This document shows positions 1,046 to 22,438 of a stretch of 22,606 nucleotides of DNA, piece after piece. The stretch covers positions 1 through 22,606 of the forward strand of contig CAJMOO010000029.1 in the NCBI GenBank assembly GCA_905215045.1, written 5' to 3'. The notes under the pieces were generated by a model. It ran no database searches. It saw only the letters and a list, made by a program, of their open reading frames with translations, and was not told the origin of the DNA. Source of the DNA: an uncultured bacterium. Lineage in GTDB: Bacteria > Bacillota_A > Clostridia > Lachnospirales > Lachnospiraceae. The translations under genes were made by a program, and so were the position numbers. Position 1 is the stretch's first letter; each line of letters begins with the position of its first letter.

Positions 1046-4000
1046 CTATTCTTCTGTGACTAAATTATCAAATTCACATTTCTCAAATTCCTGAATGGAA
1101 ATATTTTTCTTGTTTGGATTGGCGTATACAAAAGTCTTATCTACATTTTCTAGGTAATTTTGAATCTTATCATTTGTCGCACTGATGATTGCCTGGAATC
1201 CTAGATTCCTGATCAGGTCAATACAACTTGCAACTTTCTCTGCATCCATCTTAGAGAATGCTTCATCTAAGACAACCAGACGGATGCTTGGATTTCTTCG
1301 TACTTTTGGTGAAAGATGAATTCCATAGGCCTGTGCAAAACTTGCGAGTAATGCAACATATAATGGGTTCTGTCCTTCTCCACCAGAGTTTTTCTTGATC
1401 ATCTTACTTAATCCGATCGTCAGTTTTTCATCACCATCCACAATCTGTTCCATATCAAAGGACAGATACGTACGATAATCAGAATATTTCTGCATATCAC
1501 GTTTCGCATTCTCAAGTTCTTCACCGGTTGCACCTTCTGGCGGGATAAAGATCTCTATCAATTCATTCATCAGTTCCCCGTATTTATTCTCATGTTCCAT
1601 AGAGAAGAGATTCATCTGGTCATCCATCGTTGTATTTAAGACAGATGGATCGATATTCAGAGAATCATCCATAAACATTGGATAATATTTTCCATCGGCT
1701 CCTGTATTTCTTGTGATCTTAAATTGGTATTTGTCTTTCCCAAAGTCGAGTCCACTGATCATGCGGTTTAATTCATCCCTGCGCTGATAAGCTTCCCTGA
1801 TCGCGCTTCGAATCTTGTATACAAAGTCATCTTTGAAATGTTCCATTGCTGTTTTGGCCTGTTTTGCAGCTTTTTCACGATACATTTCCATGTGATCAGA
1901 TGATAATTCCTTATAAAGCTTGTCATACACATCATTATTCTCATCTACTGCTGAGAATGTGCGGTTCGGATATTCCCTTAAATATGCAGTTCTGACTTCC
2001 ACAAGCTTTCTATATTCTTCTTCCTTCTTCGTTCCGGCATCATAGTATTTCCTTGCTGCACGTTTTTTGAGACGTTCATAGTCTTCGGTGTCTGTCTTCT
2101 CGATCTCTTGTGCAAACTGCTGCTCGTACTCTCCATTTGCCGGTAATTCATTCTGTGCACGGATCAATGCTTCATTCTGGTCAATGATCTGCTGTCTGCA
2201 TTCTTTTAATGCGTTCTGTGTTGCCCAGATCGCTTCTTTCATTGCATTGATCTCTTGTTTGCAATCTTCCTGTTTCGCCCTGTTCTGGTCTCTTTCCTCT
2301 TCCAGACCTTTTAAGGCACCTTCTCTTAATTTTGTCAGCTGATTTTCTAAATCTTCATATTCTTCCTGACGTTCTTTCGCTCGTTCCAGTGTTTCCTGCT
2401 GTTTTAAATATTCCTCGGCTGACTGTGGAAGATATTCATAATCTAAGATGACAGCTGCACTTAGAACTTCTTTTTCTAATGGATCTTTCTTGTCAAAGAT
2501 CTTATCTTTTTCTTTCTCTAACTCTTTGATCCTGTGACGTAAACTGTTATCTCCGATGTAGGAGTTTCTTGTGTACTGCTTTGGATCTAATCGTTTTAAC
2601 TGGAAGTTCTTATAAAGCATTCCATCTGGCGTGATACCGGTACGACAATTTCTTAATTCGTCGATCGTCTCACATTTGATCACACGCCCGATCAGCGATT
2701 CGATTAACTTTTTCACATAAGACTGCTCTGCAAGAACCTCTTCTGATAACGCATTTTCCTCGACCTTCATGTCCTGCTTATCAATCTTTTGTGTATCTGC
2801 GATTGAAATTCTCCAGTATTTCTTCTGATCCATATCACGATAGATTTCCATGGCATCCTTGACGTATTTTGGTTCCACGATCAGAGTCAGTTTATTCGAT
2901 CCTAAATATCCTTCGACCGCTTTATGCCATTTCTCATCTTTCATATCTAACAGATCGGCAAGCACATTTACCTTTACAAAATCACCACATTTTTCGCTTA
3001 ATTTCGTCTGTAATTCATATCTTGCATCCAGAACTTCTTTTGGATACGCTTTGTTACCCTTTTTCAGTTCTTTCAACTCATCAGAAATGGATTTTTCCTG
3101 TTTCTTTAAGGTTCTTAGTGCAGACGCATTATCTTGTCGTTCTTCCTCAGTTTCTTTTCTTAAGATATCCAATGTATGTTTTAATCGGTTTAGATCATCT
3201 TCTGTGATATCTCCCTGTTCAAATTTCTCGATATCCCAGATTGCCTGATTTGGCGTAATATCGAGATCACACCATTTTTTTAAGTCTTTTGATGTCTGTT
3301 CCCAACGCTGTACGGAATGATTTAACTGTCCTAACAACTCCTGAACATCCTTTTTCCTTGTTGCGATCTGATCGTATCCACTTCCTGCGATCTGTGCTAC
3401 TAATGCATCGTATTCTTTGGCGAGTTTCTCTAGTTTCTTCTCAAGAACTGTTTCATTCTCTTCCTGTGTCTTTAGATCTTTCTCTCCATCTTCAATCTTT
3501 TGCTGTAATAGATGAATATCTGTTTTTAATTTCAGGACATCCAGTTTGTTCATGCGGTACTGACAATAATCCTGTTCCTCTTTTTTGGTCTTGAATTTAA
3601 CGAAACTTTCTTTGATCTCTTCTAAGCTCTTTGCTTCCTTTAATGTATCTTCGATTCTCTGACGCATTCTTCCATACTGCATCACGCTTTCCTGCATATC
3701 TTCAATATGAATGTCCTGCTCCATACAGATGTATTCTTTCACAAAATCTTCGAGCTTGATATTCATTTTAAATGGGATCGCGCGTTTAAACAGTCTTGGG
3801 AATTTCTCCATATCAAGACCGCCAAGATAGATGTCATACATCTGTTTTCTAAATCTCTCGTTGCTTGTTCCAAAATAGAAATCTTCTTTTTTGAAGTTTT
3901 TCTGCATATATTTGCGGAGTTCCGAAATTGTCATCGCATGTTCTTCCGTACGGTAAGCATTCTCTAAAATGCCGCCTTTGTGCCAGAAAAATAATCTGGA

Positions 4001-4405
4001 TGTATCATTTCTTGCTGTATCTACGTCAAATACAACTCCAAGACATTCTTTTTCGTCAGATTCTGTCTGTGTAAATTCAAGAACGATCGTTGTGGAGAAG
4101 TTTTTATTTCTCAAATAAGTAACTTCATCTTTCTCTCCGACCGCAACCATTCCTCGCAGGTATTCGATCAGATTTCGATCGGAATCGTCTGCTGCCGCCT
4201 TATTAAAGAATCCACGACCATCTGTATTCGCATATAAAACGATCTGCATCGCATCGATCACTGTTGACTTTCCACTTCCAGAATGTCCGGTAAAAAAATT
4301 GATTCCATCGTTGAAACTTAATATTTTCTGATCTATATAATGCCAATTATTCAGGCATATCTTCGATAATGCCAGAAATGGCTGCTTCGTCTTCGTCAAA
4401 CTCAC
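1046..4405 (-). CDS. jetC: JetC/MukB-like SMC ATPase (Wadjet or MksBEF type)
   Basis: This 1,119-residue SMC-like ATPase should form the DNA-translocating arm of a bacterial condensin-like complex. The Walker A motif GHSGSGKST is at residues 40-48. An ABC signature SGGEGQ is at 1007-1012. Walker B VVLDEAF follows around 1044-1050, with the D-loop SKMD just after. Between the two ATPase halves lies a long Lys/Glu-rich coiled coil with a hinge-like, non-coiled region around residues 470-580. The N-terminal pattern (NWHYID...FNDGINFFTG) is typical of the JetC/MukB branch rather than Smc or SbcC. The start is GTG at 4405-4403, preceded by a strong AGGAGGAAG and lying inside jetB, giving a 59-base overlap. 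Partners jetB and jetA are immediately upstream. In Wadjet systems a fourth gene, jetD, supplies the nuclease; none follows here. Confidence 0.92.
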   Translation of the reverse strand: MSLTKTKQPFLALSKICLNNWHYIDQKILSFNDGINFFTGHSGSGKSTVIDAMQIVLYANTDGRGFFNKAAADDSDRNLIEYLRGMVAVGEKDEVTYLRNKNFSTTIVLEFTQTESDEKECLGVVFDVDTARNDTSRLFFWHKGGILENAYRTEEHAMTISELRKYMQKNFKKEDFYFGTSNERFRKQMYDIYLGGLDMEKFPRLFKRAIPFKMNIKLEDFVKEYICMEQDIHIEDMQESVMQYGRMRQRIEDTLKEAKSLEEIKESFVKFKTKKEEQDYCQYRMNKLDVLKLKTDIHLLQQKIEDGEKDLKTQEENETVLEKKLEKLAKEYDALVAQIAGSGYDQIATRKKDVQELLGQLNHSVQRWEQTSKDLKKWCDLDITPNQAIWDIEKFEQGDITEDDLNRLKHTLDILRKETEEERQDNASALRTLKKQEKSISDELKELKKGNKAYPKEVLDARYELQTKLSEKCGDFVKVNVLADLLDMKDEKWHKAVEGYLGSNKLTLIVEPKYVKDAMEIYRDMDQKKYWRISIADTQKIDKQDMKVEENALSEEVLAEQSYVKKLIESLIGRVIKCETIDELRNCRTGITPDGMLYKNFQLKRLDPKQYTRNSYIGDNSLRHRIKELEKEKDKIFDKKDPLEKEVLSAAVILDYEYLPQSAEEYLKQQETLERAKERQEEYEDLENQLTKLREGALKGLEEERDQNRAKQEDCKQEINAMKEAIWATQNALKECRQQIIDQNEALIRAQNELPANGEYEQQFAQEIEKTDTEDYERLKKRAARKYYDAGTKKEEEYRKLVEVRTAYLREYPNRTFSAVDENNDVYDKLYKELSSDHMEMYREKAAKQAKTAMEHFKDDFVYKIRSAIREAYQRRDELNRMISGLDFGKDKYQFKITRNTGADGKYYPMFMDDSLNIDPSVLNTTMDDQMNLFSMEHENKYGELMNELIEIFIPPEGATGEELENAKRDMQKYSDYRTYLSFDMEQIVDGDEKLTIGLSKMIKKNSGGEGQNPLYVALLASFAQAYGIHLSPKVRRNPSIRLVVLDEAFSKMDAEKVASCIDLIRNLGFQAIISATNDKIQNYLENVDKTFVYANPNKKNISIQEFEKCEFDNLVTEE

Positions 4406-5003
4406 TGTCTACTTCCTCCTTACTGAAACTTTCGATCAATCTGCGGATGTCATCTCCTAGTAACACGACATTCACGCATGGATAGATCATCATTCTTGTC
4501 TCGTCATTTAACTCTTCTAATACATCGAGTGGTTCGATGATCTGATATTTCTTTAATAATGCGATGGAACGACGCATCTCAGTGATGGATGGCAAGGTTC
4601 TCATCAGATGGAAATCATTGATCTTTTCATGGATTTCTCCTAATGATGTATACACACTTGTATTCGATGAAGCCTCTGCCATATGTTCATCATACAATAA
4701 TTTTAAGATCAGAAGATAAATGGTTGATAATCTGGAAATCTTCTCTCCGATCAAAGTTTCTCCTTCAATATAAAAGACTCCAAGATGCAGATTTTCTCTT
4801 AATTCGATTCCTGAAATCTTAAAATATTCTCTTAAAAATTCCTGATGCAGGTCAATGGTTCTAAATTCTTTATTGTATACAAGTCTTCCGCTCTTTTTAT
4901 CATATTTTCTTTCTAATACAAATGTCTGTTTTAACAACGTACGGATCACTTTCGTGACCGCATTTTTTTCTTCGTCATTCAATTCTTCATAATACGGTAT
5001 CAT
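4347..5003 (-). CDS. jetB: JetB/MukE-like subunit (DUF4194 type)
   Basis: This 218-residue acidic protein sits between jetA and jetC and has the size and helical winged-helix character of the MukE/JetB (DUF4194) subunit. That subunit bridges the kleisin and the SMC ATPase heads. The N-terminal motif is MIPYYEELNDEEKNAVTKVI, and the C-terminus is strongly acidic. Its ATG overlaps the jetA stop codon as ATGA, with AAGGAGGA upstream, indicating translational coupling. Its 3' end overlaps jetC by 59 bases. The assignment rests on gene order plus the family pattern; a direct profile search would be needed to separate the Wadjet JetB from the MksE subfamilies. Confidence 0.82.
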   Translation of the reverse strand: MIPYYEELNDEEKNAVTKVIRTLLKQTFVLERKYDKKSGRLVYNKEFRTIDLHQEFLREYFKISGIELRENLHLGVFYIEGETLIGEKISRLSTIYLLILKLLYDEHMAEASSNTSVYTSLGEIHEKINDFHLMRTLPSITEMRRSIALLKKYQIIEPLDVLEELNDETRMMIYPCVNVVLLGDDIRRLIESFSKEEVDSEFDEDEAAISGIIEDMPE

Positions 5004-6358
5004 GATTTCGGTTTCCTCCTTACAAAAGTTAATGCCGGATAGCGGTAACTTCCATTATCGATCAATTTATCGTCTCTCTCGATCGCTTTATATTTACTGT
5101 TTCTTCTCGTACTGTAATCGTAAGCAAGGATTAATTTCTCAAAGGACTCTTCATCCCTGATATCAATATCCTTAACTTCCATATGGTCATCATGCATGTA
5201 AGCTTCAATGAAATCTTCAATCTCAGCCTGTTGGTATCTTGTATGAATCTTATTTAATCTTAGGACATCTTCTCTTGATAATTCTTCCTGCTGCTTTTCT
5301 TCTTCCACCTGACTTGCAAAATCTCTTCGTTTTCTCTTCTTATACAAAGACTTCTCTGAAAGCACTTCAAAATGAGAGAGATTCATACTCTTTCCGACCT
5401 TCTCGATCTTTTCCTCGCTGTCCTTAGAATCCCCGATTGTCTTTAACAGCTGGATCATCAGACCCCTTGTATCGGATTCCCCATTCAGCATGTAATTCAT
5501 ACGTGTTACAGTTGCCCTGATATATTTGGAATGTTCTTTATCCATATTGGAAATTCGATGTTCTATGTCATCAAATCCACGCTCGATCGCATTAATGATA
5601 CTTAAGACATCTTCACCTTTTTCTTTATCTGCTTTCTTCTGTACCTGTTCCATCCATGGAATATCTTCTCTCATTTCTCTTAAACATCGTTTGATATCAT
5701 TTTTATATAAATAGAAGTTATCATTTGTCTTTAAGATATGATATTTCTTCTCAACGATCTCCTCGACGTAACCTTCCAAATGTTCTGCCAGCACTTCTTC
5801 ATATGATTTCTGTTTTAGCAGTCGGCTAAAGAAATGGTCCATGTTGTGTAACATATCCTGCAAGGCTTTATTTAATTTCTTTGTATTAACAAGCGCTGTT
5901 TTTAACATGGCTAAGTTCATCTTCTTATCATGCCAGAATGAAAACAGTGTTGCGTATACATTCTGGATATAGATCTCTGTGTCATCCGTTGATGGGTTGA
6001 CTAATTCTTCAAATGCTGTTAAAAATACGGCTGCGTAATCAGGAATGATGATATTGGTGGTTAATGTTGAGAAATCTTCGATCCTCTTTAACCATCCTGT
6101 TTTGATCAGCCAGTTTAAGATCCTGTTTGGCGGTGTCTGGCTTGCATCAGTTTCTGATTCAAATTCTTCAGGAGATAACCAGATCCGCTGGCTTTCGTTC
6201 CAGTCTTCTAATACCTGAAGGCATACTTCTTTACTTAAATAATAATTGTTATATTCATATTCTTCGTTGATCTTCAGCAAGGCTTCCATATAAAGTTCTC
6301 TGTTCATCGAACGAAATAAACTCCAGAATGAATCTGGGATATCATAGGCAAATTTCAT
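5000..6358 (-). CDS. jetA: JetA/MukF-like kleisin subunit
   Basis: This 452-residue protein is the first gene of the jet operon and resembles the clostridial JetA family (DUF5716 type), the kleisin-like subunit of Wadjet/MksBEF complexes. It starts MKFAYDIPDSFWSLFRS and is mostly helical, with charged C-terminal segments. The reading frame stays open upstream to 6541. ATG at 6358 is nevertheless preferred because AGGAAG lies at the right distance before it, the extension is low-complexity, and the extension would run through the marR operators. Its stop overlaps the jetB start by 4 bases. A candidate promoter is at 6402-6430. In the family JetA joins the SMC heads into a ring; here that role is inferred from similarity and gene order. 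Confidence 0.82.
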   Translation of the reverse strand: MKFAYDIPDSFWSLFRSMNRELYMEALLKINEEYEYNNYYLSKEVCLQVLEDWNESQRIWLSPEEFESETDASQTPPNRILNWLIKTGWLKRIEDFSTLTTNIIIPDYAAVFLTAFEELVNPSTDDTEIYIQNVYATLFSFWHDKKMNLAMLKTALVNTKKLNKALQDMLHNMDHFFSRLLKQKSYEEVLAEHLEGYVEEIVEKKYHILKTNDNFYLYKNDIKRCLREMREDIPWMEQVQKKADKEKGEDVLSIINAIERGFDDIEHRISNMDKEHSKYIRATVTRMNYMLNGESDTRGLMIQLLKTIGDSKDSEEKIEKVGKSMNLSHFEVLSEKSLYKKRKRRDFASQVEEEKQQEELSREDVLRLNKIHTRYQQAEIEDFIEAYMHDDHMEVKDIDIRDEESFEKLILAYDYSTRRNSKYKAIERDDKLIDNGSYRYPALTFVRRKPKS

Positions 6359-6401
6359 AGGTAACTTCCTTCTTTGGTTGTACTTTATTCTCTGACTCTT
6401 T

Positions 6402-6430
6402 ATTTTAACTGATTCGAATGACCTCGTAAA
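6402..6430 (-). promoter_or_regulatory. Candidate promoter of the jet operon
   Basis: On the minus strand TTTACG (6430-6425) and TAAAAT (6407-6402) are separated by 17 bases, giving a predicted start about 40 bases upstream of the jetA ATG. The -35 matches consensus at 4 of 6 positions, so this is a plausible but moderate promoter. It lies clear of the MarR operators at 6461-6511. Confidence 0.45.
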
Positions 6431-6452
6431 GTGATTTCCTATGAAATAATAA

Positions 6453-6481
6453 TTGACACAAGTCCGAAATCGGACTATAAT
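6453..6481 (+). promoter_or_regulatory. Consensus sigma-A promoter of marR-MATE operon
   Basis: TTGACA (6453-6458) and TATAAT (6476-6481) are both perfect consensus hexamers with an ideal 17-base spacer. The palindromic operator at 6461-6476 fills the spacer, so a bound repressor would block RNA polymerase. A promoter this strong fits a tightly repressed drug-responsive operon. Confidence 0.85.
6461..6476. promoter_or_regulatory. MarR operator O1
   Basis: AGTCCGAAATCGGACT is an inverted repeat with 7-base arms and a 2-base centre. It lies within the spacer of the marR promoter and touches its -10 box. Its exact reverse complement recurs at 6496-6511. Binding by the adjacent MarR protein is inferred from position. 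Confidence 0.75.
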
Positions 6482-6495
6482 TATCATAATCTTGT

Positions 6496-6511
6496 AGTCC
6501 GATTTCGGACT
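6496..6511. promoter_or_regulatory. MarR operator O2
   Basis: AGTCCGATTTCGGACT is the exact reverse complement of the site at 6461-6476, centred 35 bases downstream of it and just past the expected transcription start. An extra T/A pair extends the symmetry to 18 bases. Two sites straddling the promoter are typical for autoregulation by MarR dimers. Confidence 0.75.
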
Positions 6512-6542
6512 AGATATAATTGTTATAAGAAAGGAAGTCACT

Positions 6543-9079: not shown

Positions 9080-9409
9080 TTATCCTTTTATCATCTCTAA
9101 CAATTCTGGTATATCATTTTTTAATGTTTCAAAGACAATATTTAAATCAACATTTCCATAATCGTGTACAATACGATTTCTCAATCCATACATAGCATTC
9201 CATGGAATATATCCTCTTTTCTCTTTATACTCATCCGACAATTTCTTTGCATTTTCAGATAACTGAATCATTCGAAACAACATTGAATCCAGTAGTATTT
9301 CATTTGCATTCAATTCTTCTATATCTACATCTTTCATATGTTGTACTATAAATTGCAAATCGTTTCGTATTTTTTGAATGTAATAACGATCATTCTTTAC
9401 ATTATCCAT
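9080..9409 (-). CDS. hepT: HepT-like toxin (DUF86, HEPN RNase)
   Basis: This 109-residue helical protein carries the HEPN signature RNRIVHDY near residues 82-89, which fits RX4HXY exactly, the catalytic motif of HepT ribonuclease toxins. In the MNT/HepT family the motif tyrosine is modified with AMP by the partner nucleotidyltransferase, which silences the RNase. The gene overlaps the upstream MNT gene by 8 bases (ATGGATAA), so toxin translation depends on antitoxin translation. The family's usual length is 110-145 residues, so this copy looks complete. Whether the pair acts as phage defence or a maintenance module cannot be told from sequence. Confidence 0.9.
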   Translation of the reverse strand: MDNVKNDRYYIQKIRNDLQFIVQHMKDVDIEELNANEILLDSMLFRMIQLSENAKKLSDEYKEKRGYIPWNAMYGLRNRIVHDYGNVDLNIVFETLKNDIPELLEMIKG

Positions 9410-9878
9410 ATATTTTTATCCCATCTTTTAATATTTCTTGTGTTAATTCTAAATTATCTTTTAGTTGATTAATTTCTAAAACATCTACTTTTTTGTGTAG
9501 TGCTTCTCTAATTTCTTCGACTAATCCATAAAATTTTAGTCCTTTTACATTTGCTGAAATTAACAGATCCACATCACTGGTTGGCTTTGCTTTCGATTTA
9601 GCGTAAGATCCAAAAAGATAACAAAAATTTACATCATATTTTTGAAATACATTTCCGCATTTTTCAGTTATATATTCTATATCAATAATTCCATGTTCTT
9701 CGTCTATTGGATTTATTTCTGAAAGTTTTTCTAATATATATTTGTATTTCAAACTTCCTTGTTTTTTCTCATCATTCTCATATGATTTATAAGAACGTAA
9801 AGATATTCCTACCAAATCAGCAACTTGTTGTTGTGTCATCTTTTTTTCAGTTCTCATTTTTTTTAACTCACCCATCAT
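9402..9878 (-). CDS. HTH-MNT fusion: nucleotidyltransferase antitoxin of HepT
   Basis: This 158-residue protein combines two domains. Residues about 4-60 form an Xre-type helix-turn-helix (MTQQQVADLVGISLRSYKSY). Residues about 75-158 form a minimal nucleotidyltransferase with GSYAKSKAKPTSDVD, which matches the GSX10DXD active site. MNT antitoxins attach AMP to the HepT tyrosine. Most stand-alone MNT proteins lack a DNA-binding domain, so this one probably also represses its own operon through the palindromes at 9902-9948. The frame is open to 9950, but ATG at 9878 is preferred: AGAGG lies 7 bases before it, and starts further upstream would fall inside the operators. ATG at 9875 is an alternative. 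Confidence 0.88.
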   Translation of the reverse strand: MMGELKKMRTEKKMTQQQVADLVGISLRSYKSYENDEKKQGSLKYKYILEKLSEINPIDEEHGIIDIEYITEKCGNVFQKYDVNFCYLFGSYAKSKAKPTSDVDLLISANVKGLKFYGLVEEIREALHKKVDVLEINQLKDNLELTQEILKDGIKIYG

Positions 9879-9896
9879 AATTGCACCTCTTAATTT

Positions 9897-9925
9897 ATAA
9901 TAGTGCAATTTTTGCACTTCGTCAA
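9897..9925 (-). promoter_or_regulatory. Promoter of the HTH-MNT/hepT operon
   Basis: On the minus strand TTGACG (9925-9920) and TATTAT (9902-9897) are 17 bases apart. The spacer is occupied by the palindrome at 9902-9918, and the predicted transcription start near 9890 leaves a leader of only about a dozen bases, just enough for the ribosome binding site. Confidence 0.7.
9902..9918. promoter_or_regulatory. Operator 1 of the HTH-MNT/hepT operon
   Basis: AGTGCAATTTTTGCACT is an inverted repeat with 7-base arms and a 3-base centre, located between the -35 and -10 boxes. A related site is centred 30 bases upstream, and a half site (GGTGCAATT) overlaps the ribosome binding site. Binding by the HTH domain of the antitoxin is inferred. 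Confidence 0.7.
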
Positions 9926-9931
9926 TTCGAA

Positions 9932-9948
9932 GGTGCAAAAATTGCACC
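9932..9948. promoter_or_regulatory. Operator 2 of the HTH-MNT/hepT operon
   Basis: GGTGCAAAAATTGCACC repeats the operator pattern TGCAA-N3-TTGCA upstream of the -35 box, centred 30 bases (close to three helical turns) from operator 1. That would place two bound dimers on the same face of the DNA. Confidence 0.7.
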
Positions 9949-9992
9949 ATTATTTAAATTCTATAATAGGTATTTTTTCTTAATAAATTTTT

Positions 9993-12023: not shown

Positions 12024-13511
12024 TTAAAATTTTCTCTCCAGCTCATCCATCTCTGCCATGATCTCCGCTTGCTGTTCATCAAACAAAAGCCCTTTATTAT
12101 ATTGATAATACTTATCACATCCATTTTCCTTGATAAACCAGACACTGTAATAATTAACATTCAGTTCTGTCACAAATACAACCATTTCCTGACTTTGTCC
12201 AAAGGCTTCTTCCATGAAGTCAAATGCATTGTCTAGTGCTTTGGTTGTATTCTCTATCTGCTGTTCTAATTTTGCTGGTTCTTTCTTGAATTCTCCTCTC
12301 ACACGTTCAAATTCTGCTTCTGCTTCTAAATGTTCAGCTTTGCTGATCTGTTCGTATGACTCCAGAGTCTTGATCACATCAAGCAACATATGTTCCTGTG
12401 CTTTTCCAAGTTTCTCTGTCTTTTTCTTTTCGTCGAAGTCCTCATGGATTTCTTTGACTACCTGACTTAATGTCTTGCCTGTTTTAAGTTGTTTTAGCCA
12501 GCCAAATAATTCCGTAACATAAGCATCCTGTCGATAAGATTCAGCAAACATTTCGGACAATTTTCCATTTAACAATCCGACAACACTTAATTTCTCATCA
12601 AATGCTGCGAATTTTAATCTGCCGATCGTTTCCTGATTCCACTGTCCTTTTAAAATACGCTCAATTCCATAGTCTTCTTTGTATTTCTTATATAATTCAT
12701 AATAGTTAGCAAAGTCTTTGGCGATCTTCAGGTGCTGTAAGTACTGAAATACCACTTCTCTGTCAATATCTTTTCCAAGTTCTTCGTAAACTTTTAATAA
12801 CTGAGACAGATCTTCCCATCCTCTGGCTGTAACAAACGCCTTTCCATCAACTGTTGTTTCCATACGATAGAAATATTCTTTACGGATTTCAAGATATGCA
12901 AGGATTGCTGGGTGGATTCCTGCCTGATATGCGTATTCTTTCCACACTTCATAGTCTGCTTCCACATCAATCTTCTTCATACGGTCCAAGGTAACTACGT
13001 CAAAATCTCTGACAGATTTATTGTATTCTGGCGGATTTCCTGCCGCTACGATGATCCAGCCATCTGGTACTTTCTGATTTCCGAACATCTTACACTGCAA
13101 AAACTGAAGCATTGTTGGTGCCAATGTCTCAGATACACAGTTGATCTCATCAATAAATAAAATACCTTCTTTATTTCCAGTCTGTTCAATCTTTTCATAA
13201 ACAGATGCAATGATCTCACTCATCGTATATTCCGTAACAGAATATGTTTGTCCACTATATTCTTTTTCTCTGATAAATGGCAAACCGATCGCACTCTGTC
13301 TTGTGTGGTGCGTGATCGTATAAGCTACCAATCCAATCTCACATTCTCTTGCGATCTGTTCCATGATCTGTGTTTTTCCAATTCCCGGAGGGCCCATCAA
13401 AAGGATCGGACGCTGTCTGATGGATGGTATTTTATATTCTCCATAATTATCCTTTGTAAGATAAGCTTCAATGGAATCTTTGATTTCCTGTTTTGCTCTT
13501 TTAATATTCAT
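12024..13511 (-). CDS. MoxR-type AAA+ ATPase
   Basis: This 495-residue protein has an N-terminal AAA+ module. Walker A GPPGIGKT is at 40-47, Walker B ILFIDEIN at 117-124 and a sensor-1 region VAAGNPPEYN at 155-164. A charged helical C-terminal half follows. MoxR ATPases act with vWA-domain partners as chaperone- or chelatase-like machines, and the gene just upstream encodes such a partner. Although the frame is open to 13544, ATG at 13511 is preferred because AAGGAG stands 9 bases before it; this start overlaps the vWA gene by 11 bases. The C-terminal half (about residues 270-495) matches nothing I recognise and may bind the partner or substrate. Confidence 0.87.
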   Translation of the reverse strand: MNIKRAKQEIKDSIEAYLTKDNYGEYKIPSIRQRPILLMGPPGIGKTQIMEQIARECEIGLVAYTITHHTRQSAIGLPFIREKEYSGQTYSVTEYTMSEIIASVYEKIEQTGNKEGILFIDEINCVSETLAPTMLQFLQCKMFGNQKVPDGWIIVAAGNPPEYNKSVRDFDVVTLDRMKKIDVEADYEVWKEYAYQAGIHPAILAYLEIRKEYFYRMETTVDGKAFVTARGWEDLSQLLKVYEELGKDIDREVVFQYLQHLKIAKDFANYYELYKKYKEDYGIERILKGQWNQETIGRLKFAAFDEKLSVVGLLNGKLSEMFAESYRQDAYVTELFGWLKQLKTGKTLSQVVKEIHEDFDEKKKTEKLGKAQEHMLLDVIKTLESYEQISKAEHLEAEAEFERVRGEFKKEPAKLEQQIENTTKALDNAFDFMEEAFGQSQEMVVFVTELNVNYYSVWFIKENGCDKYYQYNKGLLFDEQQAEIMAEMDELERKF

Positions 13512-14820
13512 GTTTTTCTTCTCCTTCATCAAGATCTTCGGCATCGACGATCAATTTAACTGCCCATGGCGGTACATCCACATCTTCGTATTCTTCCTGC
13601 ATAAAAATAAATGCTGTCTGATATGGTGGTTTCTTCTTTGGATAGGTTCCTTTTCCATCTGTGAAATAGATCAATCCCTTCAGATGATAAAATTCACCCT
13701 GTTCGATCAGATGATTCACATATTCAAATGCTGGCCGGAAATCTGTCCCACCTTCTCCGATCAGTTCCAAATGTTCCATATATTCTTTTAATTCTTTTTC
13801 GTCTGTGATCTTCTGGTCGTTTTGTACCATCTCATCACACTGAATGATATGAATATTTACCTTATGAAAAAAGCTCTCTGCTTCCGTTAACACACCATAT
13901 GTTTCTTCCAGAAATTTCTTTACCAGATCACCAGAACATGACATTGATGTATCAATCACGATGGCAAAGTCTTCAACTTTCTTTACTTCCTTCCACTCCT
14001 GCGGCTCGATCAACGGCATATTCCCATACATAGAAAGCCCATAACTGTAAAATATATAGTCAAACGAATCTGGGTCCACACTGACTTCTTCTCTTAAAAC
14101 CGAAAATTTTCTTAAAAATTCACGATAATCATAACGGTCTCTGTTTTCTACCTGTACCTGTCCAATCAGATCCCCTGCTTGTTGTGACTCTTCACTGGAA
14201 AATGTCTCCATATCTGTTTCCGTTTTTTCACTGATATTCTTCCATTTATTTTCTACTTCCTGATGAAGATCTTGTTTGGGATCTTCGGGCCAATACTGGT
14301 GGTCATCTACCCGAAATTCCATCTGCAGTTCTTTTATTTTCTTCTCTTCTAATCCAAAAGAAACCAACTGTCGATAAATCCCCTCGGCTGTCAATACTTT
14401 GAGGTTCCTCTCAAGCTGCCCGTAAATGTCTTTGCGCAGCCTTGTTTGCACCATATGGATACATTTTAAATGCCAGTGATCAATAATTGATTCGACTGCG
14501 ATATCACAAGAAATATTCCATAGAGTCTTATCTCTTCCTTTTCTTCTTGTCACATGATGTAAAATACAGTGAAGCACCATATGAAGATATGCACGATTCA
14601 TCCGGACTCTGTTTTGCCTGTACATGCCTCCTAAAGCTCCTGGATGATAAAATATACACATTCCATCCGTTCCAACACCATTTACAGAAGGATCGATCAC
14701 ATAAGCAAAACTGCTTAATGCCACATCTAAAAAACGCATATGGATATATAATTCATTTCTTGTCGTCGCAAGGATCTTTGTTCCAAGTTCACTGAGACGC
14801 TCATTGATATTTTCTTCCAT
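13501..14820 (-). CDS. DUF2201-type protein: zincin-like domain plus vWA domain
   Basis: This 439-residue protein has two recognisable parts. The N-terminal domain (about 1-170) resembles the putative metallopeptidase fold of DUF2201 proteins, with HMVLHCILHH at 80-89 and the following WNISCDIAVESII. The C-terminal vWA domain (about 283-430) has a complete metal-ion-dependent adhesion site: D290-T-S-M-S294, T359 in EGGTD, and D388 in YFTDG. The catalytic Glu of HExxH is Met here, so proteolysis is doubtful. The middle section is acidic and probably disordered. vWA proteins of this kind are substrates or adaptors of MoxR ATPases, and the MoxR gene overlaps the end of this one. Confidence 0.87.
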   Translation of the reverse strand: MEENINERLSELGTKILATTRNELYIHMRFLDVALSSFAYVIDPSVNGVGTDGMCIFYHPGALGGMYRQNRVRMNRAYLHMVLHCILHHVTRRKGRDKTLWNISCDIAVESIIDHWHLKCIHMVQTRLRKDIYGQLERNLKVLTAEGIYRQLVSFGLEEKKIKELQMEFRVDDHQYWPEDPKQDLHQEVENKWKNISEKTETDMETFSSEESQQAGDLIGQVQVENRDRYDYREFLRKFSVLREEVSVDPDSFDYIFYSYGLSMYGNMPLIEPQEWKEVKKVEDFAIVIDTSMSCSGDLVKKFLEETYGVLTEAESFFHKVNIHIIQCDEMVQNDQKITDEKELKEYMEHLELIGEGGTDFRPAFEYVNHLIEQGEFYHLKGLIYFTDGKGTYPKKKPPYQTAFIFMQEEYEDVDVPPWAVKLIVDAEDLDEGEEKHEY

Positions 14821-17363: not shown

Positions 17364-18134
17364 CTACTCCAGTACTTTTTGTTTAAAATCCTCTTTTTGC
17401 TGCATGGAAATATTTAATCCCTTGATCATAAACTGATTAATAGAACCATATTCTTCTTTCATCGTTTTAAGTGCTGCATTTAAAAATTCTTCTTTTGCCA
17501 CAAAATAGCCCTCTATTTTTTCGATTTTTTCGCGATGCAATCCTGCTAAATGAAGTTTCTTTTTTAATTTTTCTACTCTTGTGATCGCAGCTTTATTGGT
17601 CTTTAGATAATCTTCCATCACGTCATCTTCAGACACATCAAGCAAAAATAAAATGGTTGCTGATAACAATCCACAACGGTCTTTTCCTTCTGTACAATGC
17701 CATAAAACCGCACCATTTTTTGTATTCATAATCTCTCTGACTGCTTGTGAGATCTGCTTTCTGCAAAATTCTTCTTTGATCATCATCTTATAAATATCTG
17801 ACATCTCTGGAAATTCTTCCATATGTAACATCTGTTTTCTTGTTTCCTGCTCCCGGCTGACTCCCACCATGCTTTCCATAAAAAATGGAATATTCTCATA
17901 AACAGCTCCCGCCACTTCCAGATCTGGCTCTTGTTCTACTTCCATTGGTGTTCTTAAATCCAGAATTTTCTGTAAATGATATTCTGTTTCCAGTAAAATC
18001 TTATCTTTCTGCGTAATCCTTGATAAACGGTTGCTGCGGATCAGCTGTTTATCTTTGATCACTGCACCTTCTGTCGTTTTTAATCCGCCAAGGTCTCTCG
18101 TATTATCTGCACCTTCCAGATAAATCTTCCCCAT
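17364..18134 (-). CDS. Protein-tyrosine/serine phosphatase (PTP family 3 type)
   Basis: This 256-residue protein has the phosphatase signature HCTEGKDRCG at 146-155, with catalytic Cys147 and Arg153 in the CX5R pattern. It also shows the N-terminal NTRDLGGLKT and a general-acid region typical of the bacterial Tyr-phosphatase family 3 (PF13350). These enzymes remove phosphate from protein tyrosine or from phosphoinositides; the substrate here is unknown. GGAGG precedes the ATG. It is 24 bases after the GTPase-Rae1 gene and 3 bases before the GDSL gene, so all three are probably one transcript. Confidence 0.9.
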   Translation of the reverse strand: MGKIYLEGADNTRDLGGLKTTEGAVIKDKQLIRSNRLSRITQKDKILLETEYHLQKILDLRTPMEVEQEPDLEVAGAVYENIPFFMESMVGVSREQETRKQMLHMEEFPEMSDIYKMMIKEEFCRKQISQAVREIMNTKNGAVLWHCTEGKDRCGLLSATILFLLDVSEDDVMEDYLKTNKAAITRVEKLKKKLHLAGLHREKIEKIEGYFVAKEEFLNAALKTMKEEYGSINQFMIKGLNISMQQKEDFKQKVLE

Positions 18135-18158: not shown

Positions 18159-20801
18159 TCAGTTTTCCTTCTCTGGCTGTTCTTTCTCCAAGGATATTCC
18201 ATCCATCATATAAGTTTTCTCATTTTTCTGATTCTCCAGATATTCTGTTCTGATCTGTGCTTTTGCTTCTTCATAGTCTCTCTTTAATTCTCTTGCAGAA
18301 AGCAGACGGCAGCCTTGTCCGCGGATAATGATCTGTTCCAATCCATCGGATGTTGCAACTGTTACATCGTATTTTCGTCCATGGGTATGGGCAAATTTTT
18401 CAATATACTGATCTGCTGTTTCTGCTTCTTTTGTGTAGACTACATGAATATTCATGTAATCTGTGATCTCTGTTTCATGTCCTTTCACACGATATGCATC
18501 AAACACAACAATCAGCTCCATGCCCTTCATTCCCTGATAATTACTCATCTCATCAAGTAATTTTCCTCTGGCTGCATCTACATTCGTATCTAATAATTCC
18601 TTCAGATCATCCCATGCGTAAATGATATTATATCCATCAACCAGCAGGTATTTCTTGGACATATCTCTTTTTACCGATGATTTTTCTGCAGATGTATGAT
18701 AATCCTGTACAAGCCTTGCTGTTTTCTTCTTCTTCCATTTACTTTTATTATGCTGGTTTGCATAAAATGTTTGTTCAAGAATCCGATCGATTTCCTCTGT
18801 ATCAATTGATTCTTCTTCAATATAAGCCCTTCGCTGTGTCAGTTCATCAAATTCCTCTTCCTCGATTTCTTTCGCAAGAACGCTCTCTAAATGCATATGT
18901 TCTGGTACCTCATTCCATGCGACATTATACCCGGCTCCATGGGAACAGAAAACAGATCCACATGGATTTTCAAGATCTCTATCTGGATCATATCCACTGG
19001 CTTCTATGATTTCTTCTTCATTATGGCAGATATCATATCCATTTAAGGTTGTAAATAATCTTCCCATACCTTTGGAATATGCTAATACTTCTTTTTGGTA
19101 TCCTTGCATCGTAGAAACTGGTGCTATTCCTTGAAGCACTGACATCTCTCCTGCAGTATCTGGTGTATCAAACGTACCTTGCATCTTTTCAATATCTGTC
19201 ATAGCTCTTCCGATCATCTGCTGTGGAACTTCCAGCCGGAACTTATAATATGGCTCTAATAAAACACTCTGTGCCATACGAAGCCCCTGTCTTACTGCAC
19301 GGTATGTCGCCTGACGGAAATCTCCACCTTCTGTATGCTTCTGATGTGCCCGTCCTGCTGCCAGCGTGATCTTGATATCTGTGATCGGTGCTCCTGTTAA
19401 AACCCCTCTATGATCTCTTTCTAATAAATGTGTTATGATCAGTCTCTGCCAATTCTTATCCAATACATCTTCGCTGCACTGTGTGTCCATAACAACTCCA
19501 CTTCCCCTCTCCAGCGGTTCCATCAACAAATGTACTTCTGCATAATGTCTTAACGGTTCAAAATGCCCAACACCTTCTACAACATCTGCTATCGTCTCTT
19601 TGTATACAATATTGCCCTGTCCAAATTCCACATCTACATCAAAGCGTTCTTTGATCAGACTCTTTAGGATCTCCAATTGAACCTCTCCCATGATCTGCAC
19701 CTGAATCTCTTGTAATTCTTCATTCCAGATGATGTGAAGTTCTGGTTCTTCTTCTTCCAGCTGACGAAGTTTTGGAAGTATCACACTTGCACTTGTCTCT
19801 TCTGGCAATATCATCTGGTAAGTAAGTACTGGCTCTAACACAGGTTCATATCCGCCCTGCTCTGCTCCAAGACACTGCCCAGGTATCGTATCTGAAAGTC
19901 CTGTAACCGCACAGATTCTTCCTGCCTGCAGTTCATTTACTGTCTCATACTTTTCTCCCGAATAGATACGGATCTGATTGATCTTTTCATCACTTTCTGT
20001 AATAACTGTTTTTACCTTTAAATTTCCACCTGTTACTTTCAAATGTGTCAGACGATTTCCACTTTCATCTCTTGTGATCTTAAATATACGTGCACCAAAT
20101 TCCTCTGGATATTCTCTTTCTTCTGTATAAAATGCAAAATCACCCAGAAATTCATTGACTCCTTGAAGTTTTAACGCTGATCCAAAAAAGCATGGGAAAA
20201 TCTTACGTTCTGCGATCATTTCCCGGATCTTGGATTCCGTGATCTCACCTGATTCCAGATAATGATCCAGTAACGCCTCATCTTCCATAGCGATCATCTC
20301 ATAAAACTCATCACTACCCTTTTCTCCAAAATCAATACATCCGCTGCTTAAACGTTCCTGTAATTCTTTCAATAATTGATCTTTTTGTGTTCCGTCCTGA
20401 TCCATCTTGTTAATAAATAAAAATGTTGGGATCTTATATCTCTCAAGCAGGCTCCATAATGTCAAAGTATGGCCCTGCACACCATCTGCTCCGCTGATCA
20501 CAAGAACCGCATAATCAAGCACTTGCAGGGTTCTTTCCATCTCCGCAGAAAAATCCACATGTCCTGGTGTGTCAAGCAAAGTAAGATCCATCTCATTCAT
20601 TGAAACCTCTGCCTGCTTGGAAAAAATGGTAATTCCTCTGGACCGTTCTAGTTCATAAGTATCTAAAAATGCATCTCCATTATCCACACGTCCGATTTTT
20701 CTCAAATTCCCTGCAGTATATAAAATTGCCTCTGATAGTGTTGTCTTCCCGGCATCCACATGAGCCAGAATACCAGTTACTATGTGCTTTTTATTCTTCA
20801 T
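18159..20801 (-). CDS. TetM/EF-G-like translational GTPase fused to a Rae1/YacP nuclease domain
   Basis: This 880-residue protein joins two ribosome-related modules. Residues 1 to about 660 are an EF-G/TetM-like GTPase with G1 AHVDAGKT (13-20), G2 RGIT (55-58), G3 DTPGH (77-81), G4 NKMD (131-134) and G5 GSAL (207-210). Domains II-V follow, including MGEVQLEIL near 371 and LLEPYYKF near 514. Residues about 717-850 match the Rae1/YacP (NYN, PIN-like) nuclease: LLVDGYNIIYAW (719-730), VVFDAY (765-770), ETADQYIEKFA (794-804) and VATSDG with GQG and SARELKRDYEEA after it. Candidate acidic catalytic residues are D722, D768, D797 and D819. Tet(M) itself has about 640 residues and no such tail, and its A-site loop YSPVST is absent. 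A Lys-rich linker (685-695) separates the modules. It is the first gene of an operon with the phosphatase and GDSL genes. Confidence 0.9.
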   Translation of the reverse strand: MKNKKHIVTGILAHVDAGKTTLSEAILYTAGNLRKIGRVDNGDAFLDTYELERSRGITIFSKQAEVSMNEMDLTLLDTPGHVDFSAEMERTLQVLDYAVLVISGADGVQGHTLTLWSLLERYKIPTFLFINKMDQDGTQKDQLLKELQERLSSGCIDFGEKGSDEFYEMIAMEDEALLDHYLESGEITESKIREMIAERKIFPCFFGSALKLQGVNEFLGDFAFYTEEREYPEEFGARIFKITRDESGNRLTHLKVTGGNLKVKTVITESDEKINQIRIYSGEKYETVNELQAGRICAVTGLSDTIPGQCLGAEQGGYEPVLEPVLTYQMILPEETSASVILPKLRQLEEEEPELHIIWNEELQEIQVQIMGEVQLEILKSLIKERFDVDVEFGQGNIVYKETIADVVEGVGHFEPLRHYAEVHLLMEPLERGSGVVMDTQCSEDVLDKNWQRLIITHLLERDHRGVLTGAPITDIKITLAAGRAHQKHTEGGDFRQATYRAVRQGLRMAQSVLLEPYYKFRLEVPQQMIGRAMTDIEKMQGTFDTPDTAGEMSVLQGIAPVSTMQGYQKEVLAYSKGMGRLFTTLNGYDICHNEEEIIEASGYDPDRDLENPCGSVFCSHGAGYNVAWNEVPEHMHLESVLAKEIEEEEFDELTQRRAYIEEESIDTEEIDRILEQTFYANQHNKSKWKKKKTARLVQDYHTSAEKSSVKRDMSKKYLLVDGYNIIYAWDDLKELLDTNVDAARGKLLDEMSNYQGMKGMELIVVFDAYRVKGHETEITDYMNIHVVYTKEAETADQYIEKFAHTHGRKYDVTVATSDGLEQIIIRGQGCRLLSARELKRDYEEAKAQIRTEYLENQKNEKTYMMDGISLEKEQPEKEN

Positions 20802-20838: not shown

Positions 20839-20868
20839 AGTATAACACATATCCTGTTTTCATGTTAA
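20839..20868 (-). promoter_or_regulatory. Promoter of the GTPase-Rae1 operon
   Basis: On the minus strand TTAACA (20868-20863) and TATACT (20844-20839) are 18 bases apart, each matching consensus at 5 of 6 positions, about 40 bases upstream of the start codon. No attenuator or leader peptide of the tet(M) type is seen in the short leader. Confidence 0.65.
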
Positions 20869-22199: not shown

Positions 22200-22339
22200 A
22201 TTCAGAGGATGTCCTGTTTTTTTGCTTTTTATACACAACCTCTTTCTAATTGTCTGAAAATTTATACAATATCAATAACATTTTCTTAAAATTCAGGGTT
22301 GACGAATCTGACCAGTTATAGTAACCTAATATCCATGAG

Positions 22340-22410
22340 GTCATATGACTGACGGAGCACGTGGAATCAACCACATGGGAGTATGATCATTAATCGCCGG
22401 CCGTCTGGGC
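22340..22410 (+). ncRNA. ZTP (pfl) riboswitch aptamer
   Basis: The sequence shows the pfl-motif layout. P1 pairs GTCATA (22340-22345) with TATGAT (22382-22387), with one G-T pair. P2 is GTGG-AATCAA-CCAC (22361-22374), then TGGGAG, and the conserved 3' element CCGTCTGGGC is at 22401-22410. The pseudoknot GACGG (22351-22355) with CCGTC (22401-22405) is exactly complementary. ZTP riboswitches bind ZMP/ZTP, signals of folate and one-carbon shortage, and usually precede purine or folate genes. No target gene lies in the window. The promoter is not clear: TTGACG at 22299-22304 lacks a good -10. Confidence 0.85.
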
Positions 22411-22438
22411 AATCTTGTCTGGACGTGCGGCGTTTTTT
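22395..22438 (+). terminator. Riboswitch expression platform: terminator overlapping the aptamer
   Basis: CGCCG (22395-22399) pairs with CGGCG (22428-22432), and CGTC (22402-22405) pairs with GACG (22422-22425), across a small internal loop, followed by TTTTTT at 22433-22438. The CGTC arm is the same segment needed for the aptamer pseudoknot, so ligand binding should prevent the terminator and switch transcription on. Confidence 0.85.

What the first reader, a model, noticed from the sequence alone, without database searches (positions are those of the whole stretch)
18159..20801. Translational GTPase fused to a Rae1-type A-site endonuclease
One continuous 880-residue frame carries all five GTPase motifs of the EF-G/TetM group and a C-terminal domain with the Rae1/YacP landmarks (DGYN, VVFDA, ETAD, VATSD, SARELKRDYEEA). 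Rae1 of Bacillus subtilis is known to cut mRNA in the ribosomal A site, and TetM-like GTPases dock near that site. The fusion suggests a factor that binds stalled or drug-blocked ribosomes and cleaves their mRNA, a rescue or stress-response activity. The individual domains are known; the joint function is inference.
Basis: partly seen in the sequence, partly recalled or inferred. Interest (0 to 1): 0.85.

Follow-up and report, generated by a model that had tools for sequence, protein, structure and literature searches.

The report
Ribosome GTPase fused to mRNA-cutting nuclease
A gut bacterium makes one protein that joins an EF-G-like ribosome GTPase to a Rae1-type RNA-cutting domain; the fusion is already on record, but it appears to have replaced the separate Rae1 gene several times over in Clostridia, which points to a ribosome-guided mRNA cutter.

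Summary
The frame is real: 880 codons on the MINUS strand, 20801-18159. Residues 4-595 are a five-domain EF-G/Tet-type GTPase; 719-871 is a YacP/Rae1 NYN domain (Pfam E 3e-51). GTPase motifs and nuclease acids are conserved. The fusion is not new: Atkinson 2015 reported it in ten Clostridiales as "Tet" proteins with an NYN domain.

New here:
(1) The GTPase is not a typical Tet protein. It scores far under NCBI's cut-off, falls outside the Tet rows in a tree, and its domain-IV tip reads G..HxKHTxGGDFR where TetO has YYSPVST; H486 aligns with EF-G H573.
(2) The fused GTPases form one clade, so one fusion event is likely.
(3) Fused gene and separate yacP exclude each other: 0 of 146 class-sample genomes have both (16.7 expected).
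(4) In 45 fused genomes examined, none shows an intact yacP beside rlmB; two keep decayed remnants there.
(5) An RlmB tree needs ten changes of state (five firmly supported).

So the fusion very probably does Rae1's job. Best mechanism: the GTPase brings a flexibly tethered nuclease to ribosomes, which then cuts A-site mRNA. Ribosome binding and cleavage are untested.

The parts
18159..20801 (-). Whole fusion gene, 880 aa, ATG at 20801, stop codon at 18159-18161
20142..20792 (-). G domain (residues 4-220): AHVDAGKTT, RGITI, DTPGH (H81), NKMD, GSAL
   Evidence: Pfam; conservation
19887..20099 (-). Domain II (residues 235-305)
   Evidence: Pfam
19620..19790 (-). Domain III (residues 338-394)
   Evidence: Pfam
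19269..19613 (-). Domain IV (residues 397-511)
   Evidence: Pfam
19314..19355 (-). Domain IV tip loop G483-R496 (GRAHQKHTEGGDFR), signature of this GTPase subfamily; H486 aligns with EF-G H573
19017..19265 (-). Domain V (residues 513-595)
   Evidence: Pfam
18813..19016 (-). C-terminal extension after domain V (residues 596-663: SVFCxHGxGxxVxW hairpin, then a helix at 641-663); the hairpin part (about 596-640) is shared with the unfused relatives
   Evidence: alignment; model
18654..18812 (-). Linker, predicted flexible (residues 664-716; pLDDT under 50 at 663-667 and 679-714, but a helix is drawn at 668-679)
   Evidence: model
18189..18647 (-). YacP/Rae1-type NYN nuclease domain (residues 719-871); D722, N725, D768, D797 and D819 unchanged in 74 of 74 aligned fusions
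20839..20868 (-). Promoter-like TTAACA-18-TATACT; would give a 5' leader of about 30 nt
   Evidence: consensus scan (11 sites found in the stretch, 12.7 expected by chance, so weak); sequence

Best explanation
The protein is a ribosome-directed version of Rae1. An EF-G-paralogous GTPase, of a subfamily that also exists alone, was joined once to a Rae1 nuclease through a predicted flexible linker. The composite gene then spread and repeatedly displaced the free yacP/rae1 gene. Most likely cycle: the GTP form binds the factor site of a ribosome with an empty or paused A site and its domain IV enters the decoding region; GTP hydrolysis lets it leave; the tethered NYN domain, held at high local concentration, enters the freed A site and cuts the mRNA there, allowing mRNA decay and possibly tmRNA rescue. 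Shown here: architecture, conservation of both active sites, fused GTPases as one clade, exclusion with free yacP, decayed yacP remnants. Inferred: spread between lineages, ribosome binding, order of events, A-site cutting, physiological trigger.
Against: I found no ribosome-binding or cleavage data for any fusion (searches listed in the report). Replacement shows that free Rae1 becomes dispensable, not that the GTPase targets it. The GTPase (44% identity or more) also lives without any YacP protein (4 of 47 no-NYN genomes in the class sample) and YacP without that GTPase (42 of 46 standalone genomes), so neither needs the other. One fused family genome, G031, holds a second, partial NYN at a contig start whose attachment cannot be told. 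A domain IV in the decoding region and an NYN in the A site cannot be there at once, so the cycle needs a hand-off that nothing here tests.
Confidence: 0.6

Rival explanations
1. A tetracycline-type ribosomal protection protein whose added RNase contributes to drug resistance (Atkinson's 2015 suggestion).
For: Best PDB sequence match is TetO; best NCBIfam match is tet_protect (432.7 bits). Atkinson files it under Tet and proposes a resistance mechanism involving RNase activity.
Against: Score far under the Tet cut-off of 775. The tip residue that overlaps tetracycline in TetM, Pro509 (PMC7456112 passages), aligns with K488, kept in 26 of 28 fused rows. In the tree the subfamily lies outside the Tet rows. 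It is a common gene: 133 of the 150 family genomes listed have a fusion-length frame, and in G001 it lies on a 2.8-Mb contig. At least 4 of 53 fused genomes carry in addition a 643-644-aa frame 31-32% identical to the query; the one scored with NCBIfam, L084 from G240, is over the Tet(M/W/O/S) cut-off. Only a short apparent leader, no obvious attenuator (not tested further).
Confidence: 0.12
2. The two halves act separately: the GTPase in ribosome assembly or a special translocation step, the NYN in rRNA or mRNA processing, joined only for co-expression.
For: Each half occurs alone in other genomes. YacP usually sits beside RlmB and near MrnC, rRNA enzymes according to PMC6613710 and PMC8266666 passages. 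The linker is predicted flexible.
Against: All 53 genomes of the class sample with a fusion-length NYN frame keep the GTPase beside it. Apparent splits are few (G034, G120 and G193; G243) and may be frameshifts or errors. A mere convenience fusion would be expected to fall apart more often.
Confidence: 0.2
3. The NYN domain is catalytically dead and serves as a sensor of A-site mRNA or of stalled ribosomes.
For: None beyond the lack of an assay.
Against: Catalytic-type acids unchanged in 74 of 74 fusions. The fusion displaces the free enzyme.
Confidence: 0.04

Closest known systems
Tet-NYN fusions of Clostridiales (Atkinson 2015, PMC4342817)
   Same: Same architecture: EF2-family GTPase plus YacP-like NYN domain, reported in ten species.
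   Different: That paper classes them as Tet and proposes drug resistance. The data here separate the GTPase from Tet and show that the fusion replaces free yacP. Its supplement was not read.
Rae1/YacP of Bacillus subtilis (PDB 5mq8/5mq9)
   Same: NYN domain aligned over 135 residues with the DGYN, VFDA, ETAD and ATSD motifs.
   Different: B. subtilis Rae1 is a free small protein (181-residue chain in the PDB) encoded next to yacO/rlmB. Here it is the C-terminal part of an 880-residue GTPase at another locus.
TetM/TetO ribosomal protection proteins
   Same: Five EF-G-type domains, about 30% identity.
   Different: Different domain IV tip, no Tet cut-off match, separate clade, C-terminal extension plus nuclease.
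Elongation factor G
   Same: Fold, GTPase motifs, and a histidine at the domain IV tip aligned with T. thermophilus EF-G H573.
   Different: 24-29% identity in the fold alignments. In the HMMER alignment query residues 153-160 bridge EF-G 159-210, so most of the G' insert seems absent. Under NCBI's EF-G cut-off (310.7 against 659.4).
Unfused GTPases of the same subfamily, mostly 650-700 aa (e.g. L047, L048, L050)
   Same: Same tip signature and C-terminal SVFC hairpin; 44-53% identity to the query over the whole match.
   Different: No NYN domain; they branch outside the fused clade.

Membership tests
YacP/Rae1 (NYN_YacP, PF05991) | Profile match over the domain | tested here: met
   174 bits against cut-off 24.6, residues 719-871
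YacP/Rae1 (NYN_YacP, PF05991) | Conserved acidic residues of the NYN/PIN site | tested here: met
   D722, N725, D768, D797, D819 in 28 of 28 and 74 of 74 aligned fusions. That these are the catalytic residues is recalled.
YacP/Rae1 (NYN_YacP, PF05991) | Place beside rlmB (usual, not defining) | tested here: not met
   Fused gene lies elsewhere; 17 of 20 fetched standalone genes lie beside rlmB; in G001 rlmB is followed by sigH with a 3-nt gap
YacP/Rae1 (NYN_YacP, PF05991) | Translation-dependent mRNA cleavage in the A site | not testable with these tools
   Needs an assay
EF2-family translational GTPase | G1-G5 motifs with catalytic histidine, and domains II-V | tested here: met
   Pfam; H81 in 28 of 28 and 73 of 74; model
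Tet ribosomal protection proteins | NCBIfam NF012153 cut-off | tested here: not met
   432.7 bits against 775
Tet ribosomal protection proteins | Domain IV tip with Ser-Pro-Val at TetM 508-510 | tested here: not met
   Query reads QKH at the aligned place; K488 in 26 of 28 and H489 in 27 of 28 fused rows
Tet ribosomal protection proteins | Groups with Tet sequences in a tree | tested here: not met
   Tet rows L056, L084, L085 form their own branch, 100/100
Tet ribosomal protection proteins | Confers tetracycline resistance | not testable with these tools
   Needs a gene-removal test
Elongation factor G | NCBIfam TIGR00484 cut-off | tested here: not met
   310.7 bits against 659.4

The most novel reading that the evidence does not exclude
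The GTPase is a dedicated loader for an A-site nuclease: it recognises a particular stalled ribosome state, clears or probes the A site with its KHT tip loop, and on GTP hydrolysis hands the A site to its own tethered Rae1 domain. This would be a GTP-clocked mRNA-cleaving rescue factor, in which one protein both surveys the ribosome and cuts. The unfused GTPases would then be the same surveyor working with other partners.
Probability: 0.35. Interest if true: 0.85.

Novelty: new member of a known kind. Interest (0 to 1): 0.55.

Why it matters
[quoted passage not shown] A natural fusion to an EF-G paralogue that has displaced the free enzyme several times gives a direct handle: the same nuclease domain can be compared free and tethered, and the GTPase can be switched off to see whether targeting fails. 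It also suggests that proteins grouped or named as tetracycline resistance (Atkinson 2015; source name of P0064) may be part of ordinary translation and mRNA turnover in gut Clostridia, which matters for resistome counts.

Tried and rejected
Strict pairing of separately encoded GTPase and Rae1 was tested. In the window's family it looked striking: 8 of 10 standalone-NYN genomes carry an unfused GTPase 44-53% identical to the query (G055 has only a 33% relative, G006 none at E 1e-40), against 0 of 20 no-NYN genomes examined (one search reported 21 without a match and listed 20; G179 has a 31% relative). In the class sample it vanished: 4 of 46 standalone and 4 of 47 no-NYN genomes have it; four more standalone genomes (G328, G300, G241, G226) have 31-37% relatives. 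I dropped it as a general rule.

Fission of the fusion as the source of the family's standalone NYNs was considered, because they nest inside the fused NYNs in the tree. It was rejected as the default because 8 of 10 sit beside rlmB as in other Clostridia and the AU test does not reject one fused NYN clade (p 0.343).

Drug-leader regulation was looked for with an Rfam scan (only a ZTP riboswitch far away) and a promoter scan (chance level). A fold of the NYN part alone was useless (pLDDT 40) and was not used. In one search Tet, EF-G, EF2 and spliceosomal GTPases all score high, so fold comparison does not separate subfamilies; the NYN part was not tested by fold search. PADLOC has no match for the fusion.

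Rows dropped or sorted by me before counts: G243 (frame of 351 aa) from the class exclusion table; a second, sub-cut-off match in fused genome G318 (163-aa frame, 21 bits; looked at, a short distant match) not counted as a free yacP; G376 (sub-cut-off) from the phylum count, where G383 (frame 308) was counted as standalone; L033-L035 from the GTPase trees (broken copies); L077 and L086 (long branches); L036, L042 and L033-L035; L034, L076, L087 and the duplicate query row; L022, L024 and L093 (no rlmB in the locus). The 'no NYN' rows are 15 unfused GTPases and one split copy, L032. The 30 fused rows include the query, its near-copy L036 and the split copy L032. In the family list, seven frames of 256-690 aa and the split G034 were not put among the fused. 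One search listed rows for only 150 of its 179 genomes with a match. One search checked 76 of the 80 loci (L111, L142, L146 and L151 not given); 73 read without stops or unknown letters. The first GTPase tree used full-length rows, which favours the fused group, and was replaced.

Full report
WHAT IS THERE. The frame named in the finding is real but lies on the minus strand: ATG at 20801, stop at 18159, 880 codons. Pfam gives a complete EF-G-type series (G domain 4-220, II 235-305, III 338-394, IV 397-511, V 513-595) followed by NYN_YacP at 719-871 with E 3.3e-51. By sequence the nearest solved proteins are TetO and EF-G for the first part and B. subtilis YacP (5mq8, 5mq9) for the second. The window is probably from Anaerostipes: a protein 90% identical in the tail region is named 'translation factor GTPase family protein [Anaerostipes sp. 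Marseille-Q3525]'. The window's own assembly is not held; the nearest genome is G001, whose copy is over 99% identical.

PRIOR ART. Atkinson 2015 (PMC4342817; [quoted passage not shown] So the fusion is known. Of eight searches of the held library, seven bore on the fusion or Rae1 (one search was on TetM); no other listed paper that I saw describes it. I judged by titles and abstract starts and, for eight papers besides Atkinson's, by passages. Condon, Piton and Braun 2018 on the distribution of Rae1 and Leroy 2017 on Rae1 are not held, so I cannot say whether they mention it.

THE GTPASE IS NOT A TYPICAL TET PROTEIN. It scores 432.7 bits against NCBI's Tet cut-off of 775, and 310.7 against the EF-G cut-off of 659.4. 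In TetO the domain IV tip reads YYSPVSTPADFR. In TetM, Pro509 at this tip overlaps tetracycline, and Ser508, Pro509 and Val510 clash with sarecycline and tigecycline (PMC7456112, passages). In the fusion the same stretch reads GRAHQKHTEGGDFR. Among 28 fused rows H486 is kept in 27, K488 in 26, H489 in 27 and T490 in 28; among 16 rows without an attached NYN (15 unfused and one split copy) all four are kept in 16 of 16. In 73 fusions from named genomes the pattern G..H.KHT.GGDF is exact in 68. H486 aligns without gaps in its block with residue 573 of T. thermophilus EF-G (entry 1fnm is titled EF-G H573A). That this histidine works in the decoding region during translocation is recalled. A tree of residues 1-596 (52 rows) puts 30 fused rows on one side of a branch (97/98), inside a subfamily with 16 unfused GTPases, apart from the Tet rows.

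THE FUSION REPLACES FREE RAE1. In the window's family 179 of 200 genomes have a PF05991 match. Of the 150 genomes whose rows were listed, 133 have a frame of 800 aa or more, and 10 carry a standalone gene; the other 7 are split, shortened or at contig ends. Four genomes showed two matches. In G062 and G146 the pieces lie at contig ends and cover complementary parts of the domain, so one gene is cut by a contig break; in G111 one copy is matched in two pieces. G031 has a fused copy and a second, partial NYN at a contig start, whose attachment cannot be told; no sigH follows it within 4 kb. In the class sample 53 genomes have a long frame, 46 a standalone one, 1 a frame between, 47 none, and none has both over the cut-off (16.7 expected, Fisher 3.6e-12). 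In the phylum sample the numbers are 11, 73 and 0 both; four genomes are in both samples. Shared descent inflates such p-values, so I looked at places and trees.

Standalone genes lie beside rlmB in 17 of 20 fetched loci (8 of 10 in the window's family), many of them in the order cysS-mrnC-rlmB-yacP-sigH. These names follow the known B. subtilis neighbourhood and were not checked by profile. In 15 fused genomes the rlmB locus has no yacP detectable with two yacP queries, and in 12 of them sigH was found beside rlmB. With a yacP from the same genus (G250), the rlmB-sigH gap of G222, which those two queries had missed, shows a decayed yacP: the best piece has E 3.5e-18, pieces lie in different frames, and all three frames hold many stops. 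In 30 further fused genomes no intact yacP was found within about 1.5 kb of rlmB, and G295 keeps a remnant of at most 39 residues between rlmB and sigH (E 4.9e-6). On a tree of 63 RlmB proteins, a proxy for the hosts, the fused/standalone state needs 10 changes, 5 of them forced by well supported branches. The rows were not a random sample and RlmB is one gene, so the number is a guide. The simplest reading is that the composite gene moved between lineages and each time made the resident yacP dispensable. That is evidence that the fusion performs Rae1's function.

RESULTS AGAINST A TIGHT PARTNERSHIP. At 44% identity or more, the GTPase is found without any YacP in 4 of 47 no-NYN genomes of the class sample, and 42 of 46 standalone-YacP genomes lack it. 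In the window's family 8 of 10 standalone genomes do carry an unfused GTPase and 0 of 20 no-NYN genomes do, but this did not hold more widely. The partners can work apart; fusion is one successful arrangement.

HOW IT PROBABLY WORKS. B. [quoted passage not shown] The GTPase belongs to a family whose members put domain IV into that same region. Both cannot be there together. I therefore favour a hand-off: the GTPase binds and probes, hydrolyses GTP, withdraws, and the tethered nuclease enters. Every step after 'both domains are conserved and the fusion replaces Rae1' is inference.

VERDICT.

Noticed in passing
window 1046-6541, minus strand: JetA, JetB and JetC of a type I Wadjet (anti-plasmid) system by PADLOC. 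The next minus-strand gene is an EamA transporter, and I recognised no JetD candidate in the ORF list (not searched), so the system may lack its nuclease subunit or carry it elsewhere.
   Followed up: partly
window 22335-22417, plus strand: ZMP/ZTP riboswitch, 59.8 bits against a gathering score of 39; its target gene would lie beyond the window's end.
   Followed up: no
window 9080-9950, minus strand: A 109-aa ORF beside a 182-aa ORF with an apparent HTH and a GSYAKSKAKPTSDVDLL stretch; looks like a HEPN/MNT (HepT-MntA type) pair by recalled motif, not searched.
   Followed up: no
window 12024-14820, minus strand: AAA ATPase next to a VWA/DUF2201 metallopeptidase-like protein, a MoxR-VWA type pair by recall; present with the same neighbours in G001 (L036).
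   Followed up: no
window 17364-18134, minus strand: Tyrosine phosphatase (Y_phosphatase3) starting 24 nt after the fusion's stop codon; among the loci compared this neighbour recurs only in near-identical G001. One database protein of 770 aa (P0118) carries PF13350 together with the fusion's domains.
   Followed up: partly
L190 (G222) 3139-3587: Decayed yacP between rlmB and sigH in a genome that carries the fusion; a genus-mate (G250) has an intact yacP there.
   Followed up: yes
L032, L033, L034, L035 (G034, G120, G193, G116): Fusion genes that appear split into overlapping frames or shortened inside; natural variants or assembly errors not told apart.
   Followed up: no
L224 (G031) 2-409: A second, partial NYN_YacP at a contig start in a genome that also has the fusion: a possible exception to the exclusion, or a fragment of another fused copy or of contamination.
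   Followed up: partly
L050 and L051 (G304): One genome with two unfused GTPases of the subfamily plus a standalone yacP.
   Followed up: no
L055, L057, L046 (G328, G241, G055): Proteins intermediate between Tet and the subfamily (tet_protect 606, 561 and 453 bits, under the 775 cut-off), with H-x-x-H but no KHT at the tip: a third, unnamed group.
   Followed up: no
alignment A2, residue N131 of the query: Five of 74 fusions have T in place of N in the NKxD guanine-specificity motif.
   Followed up: no
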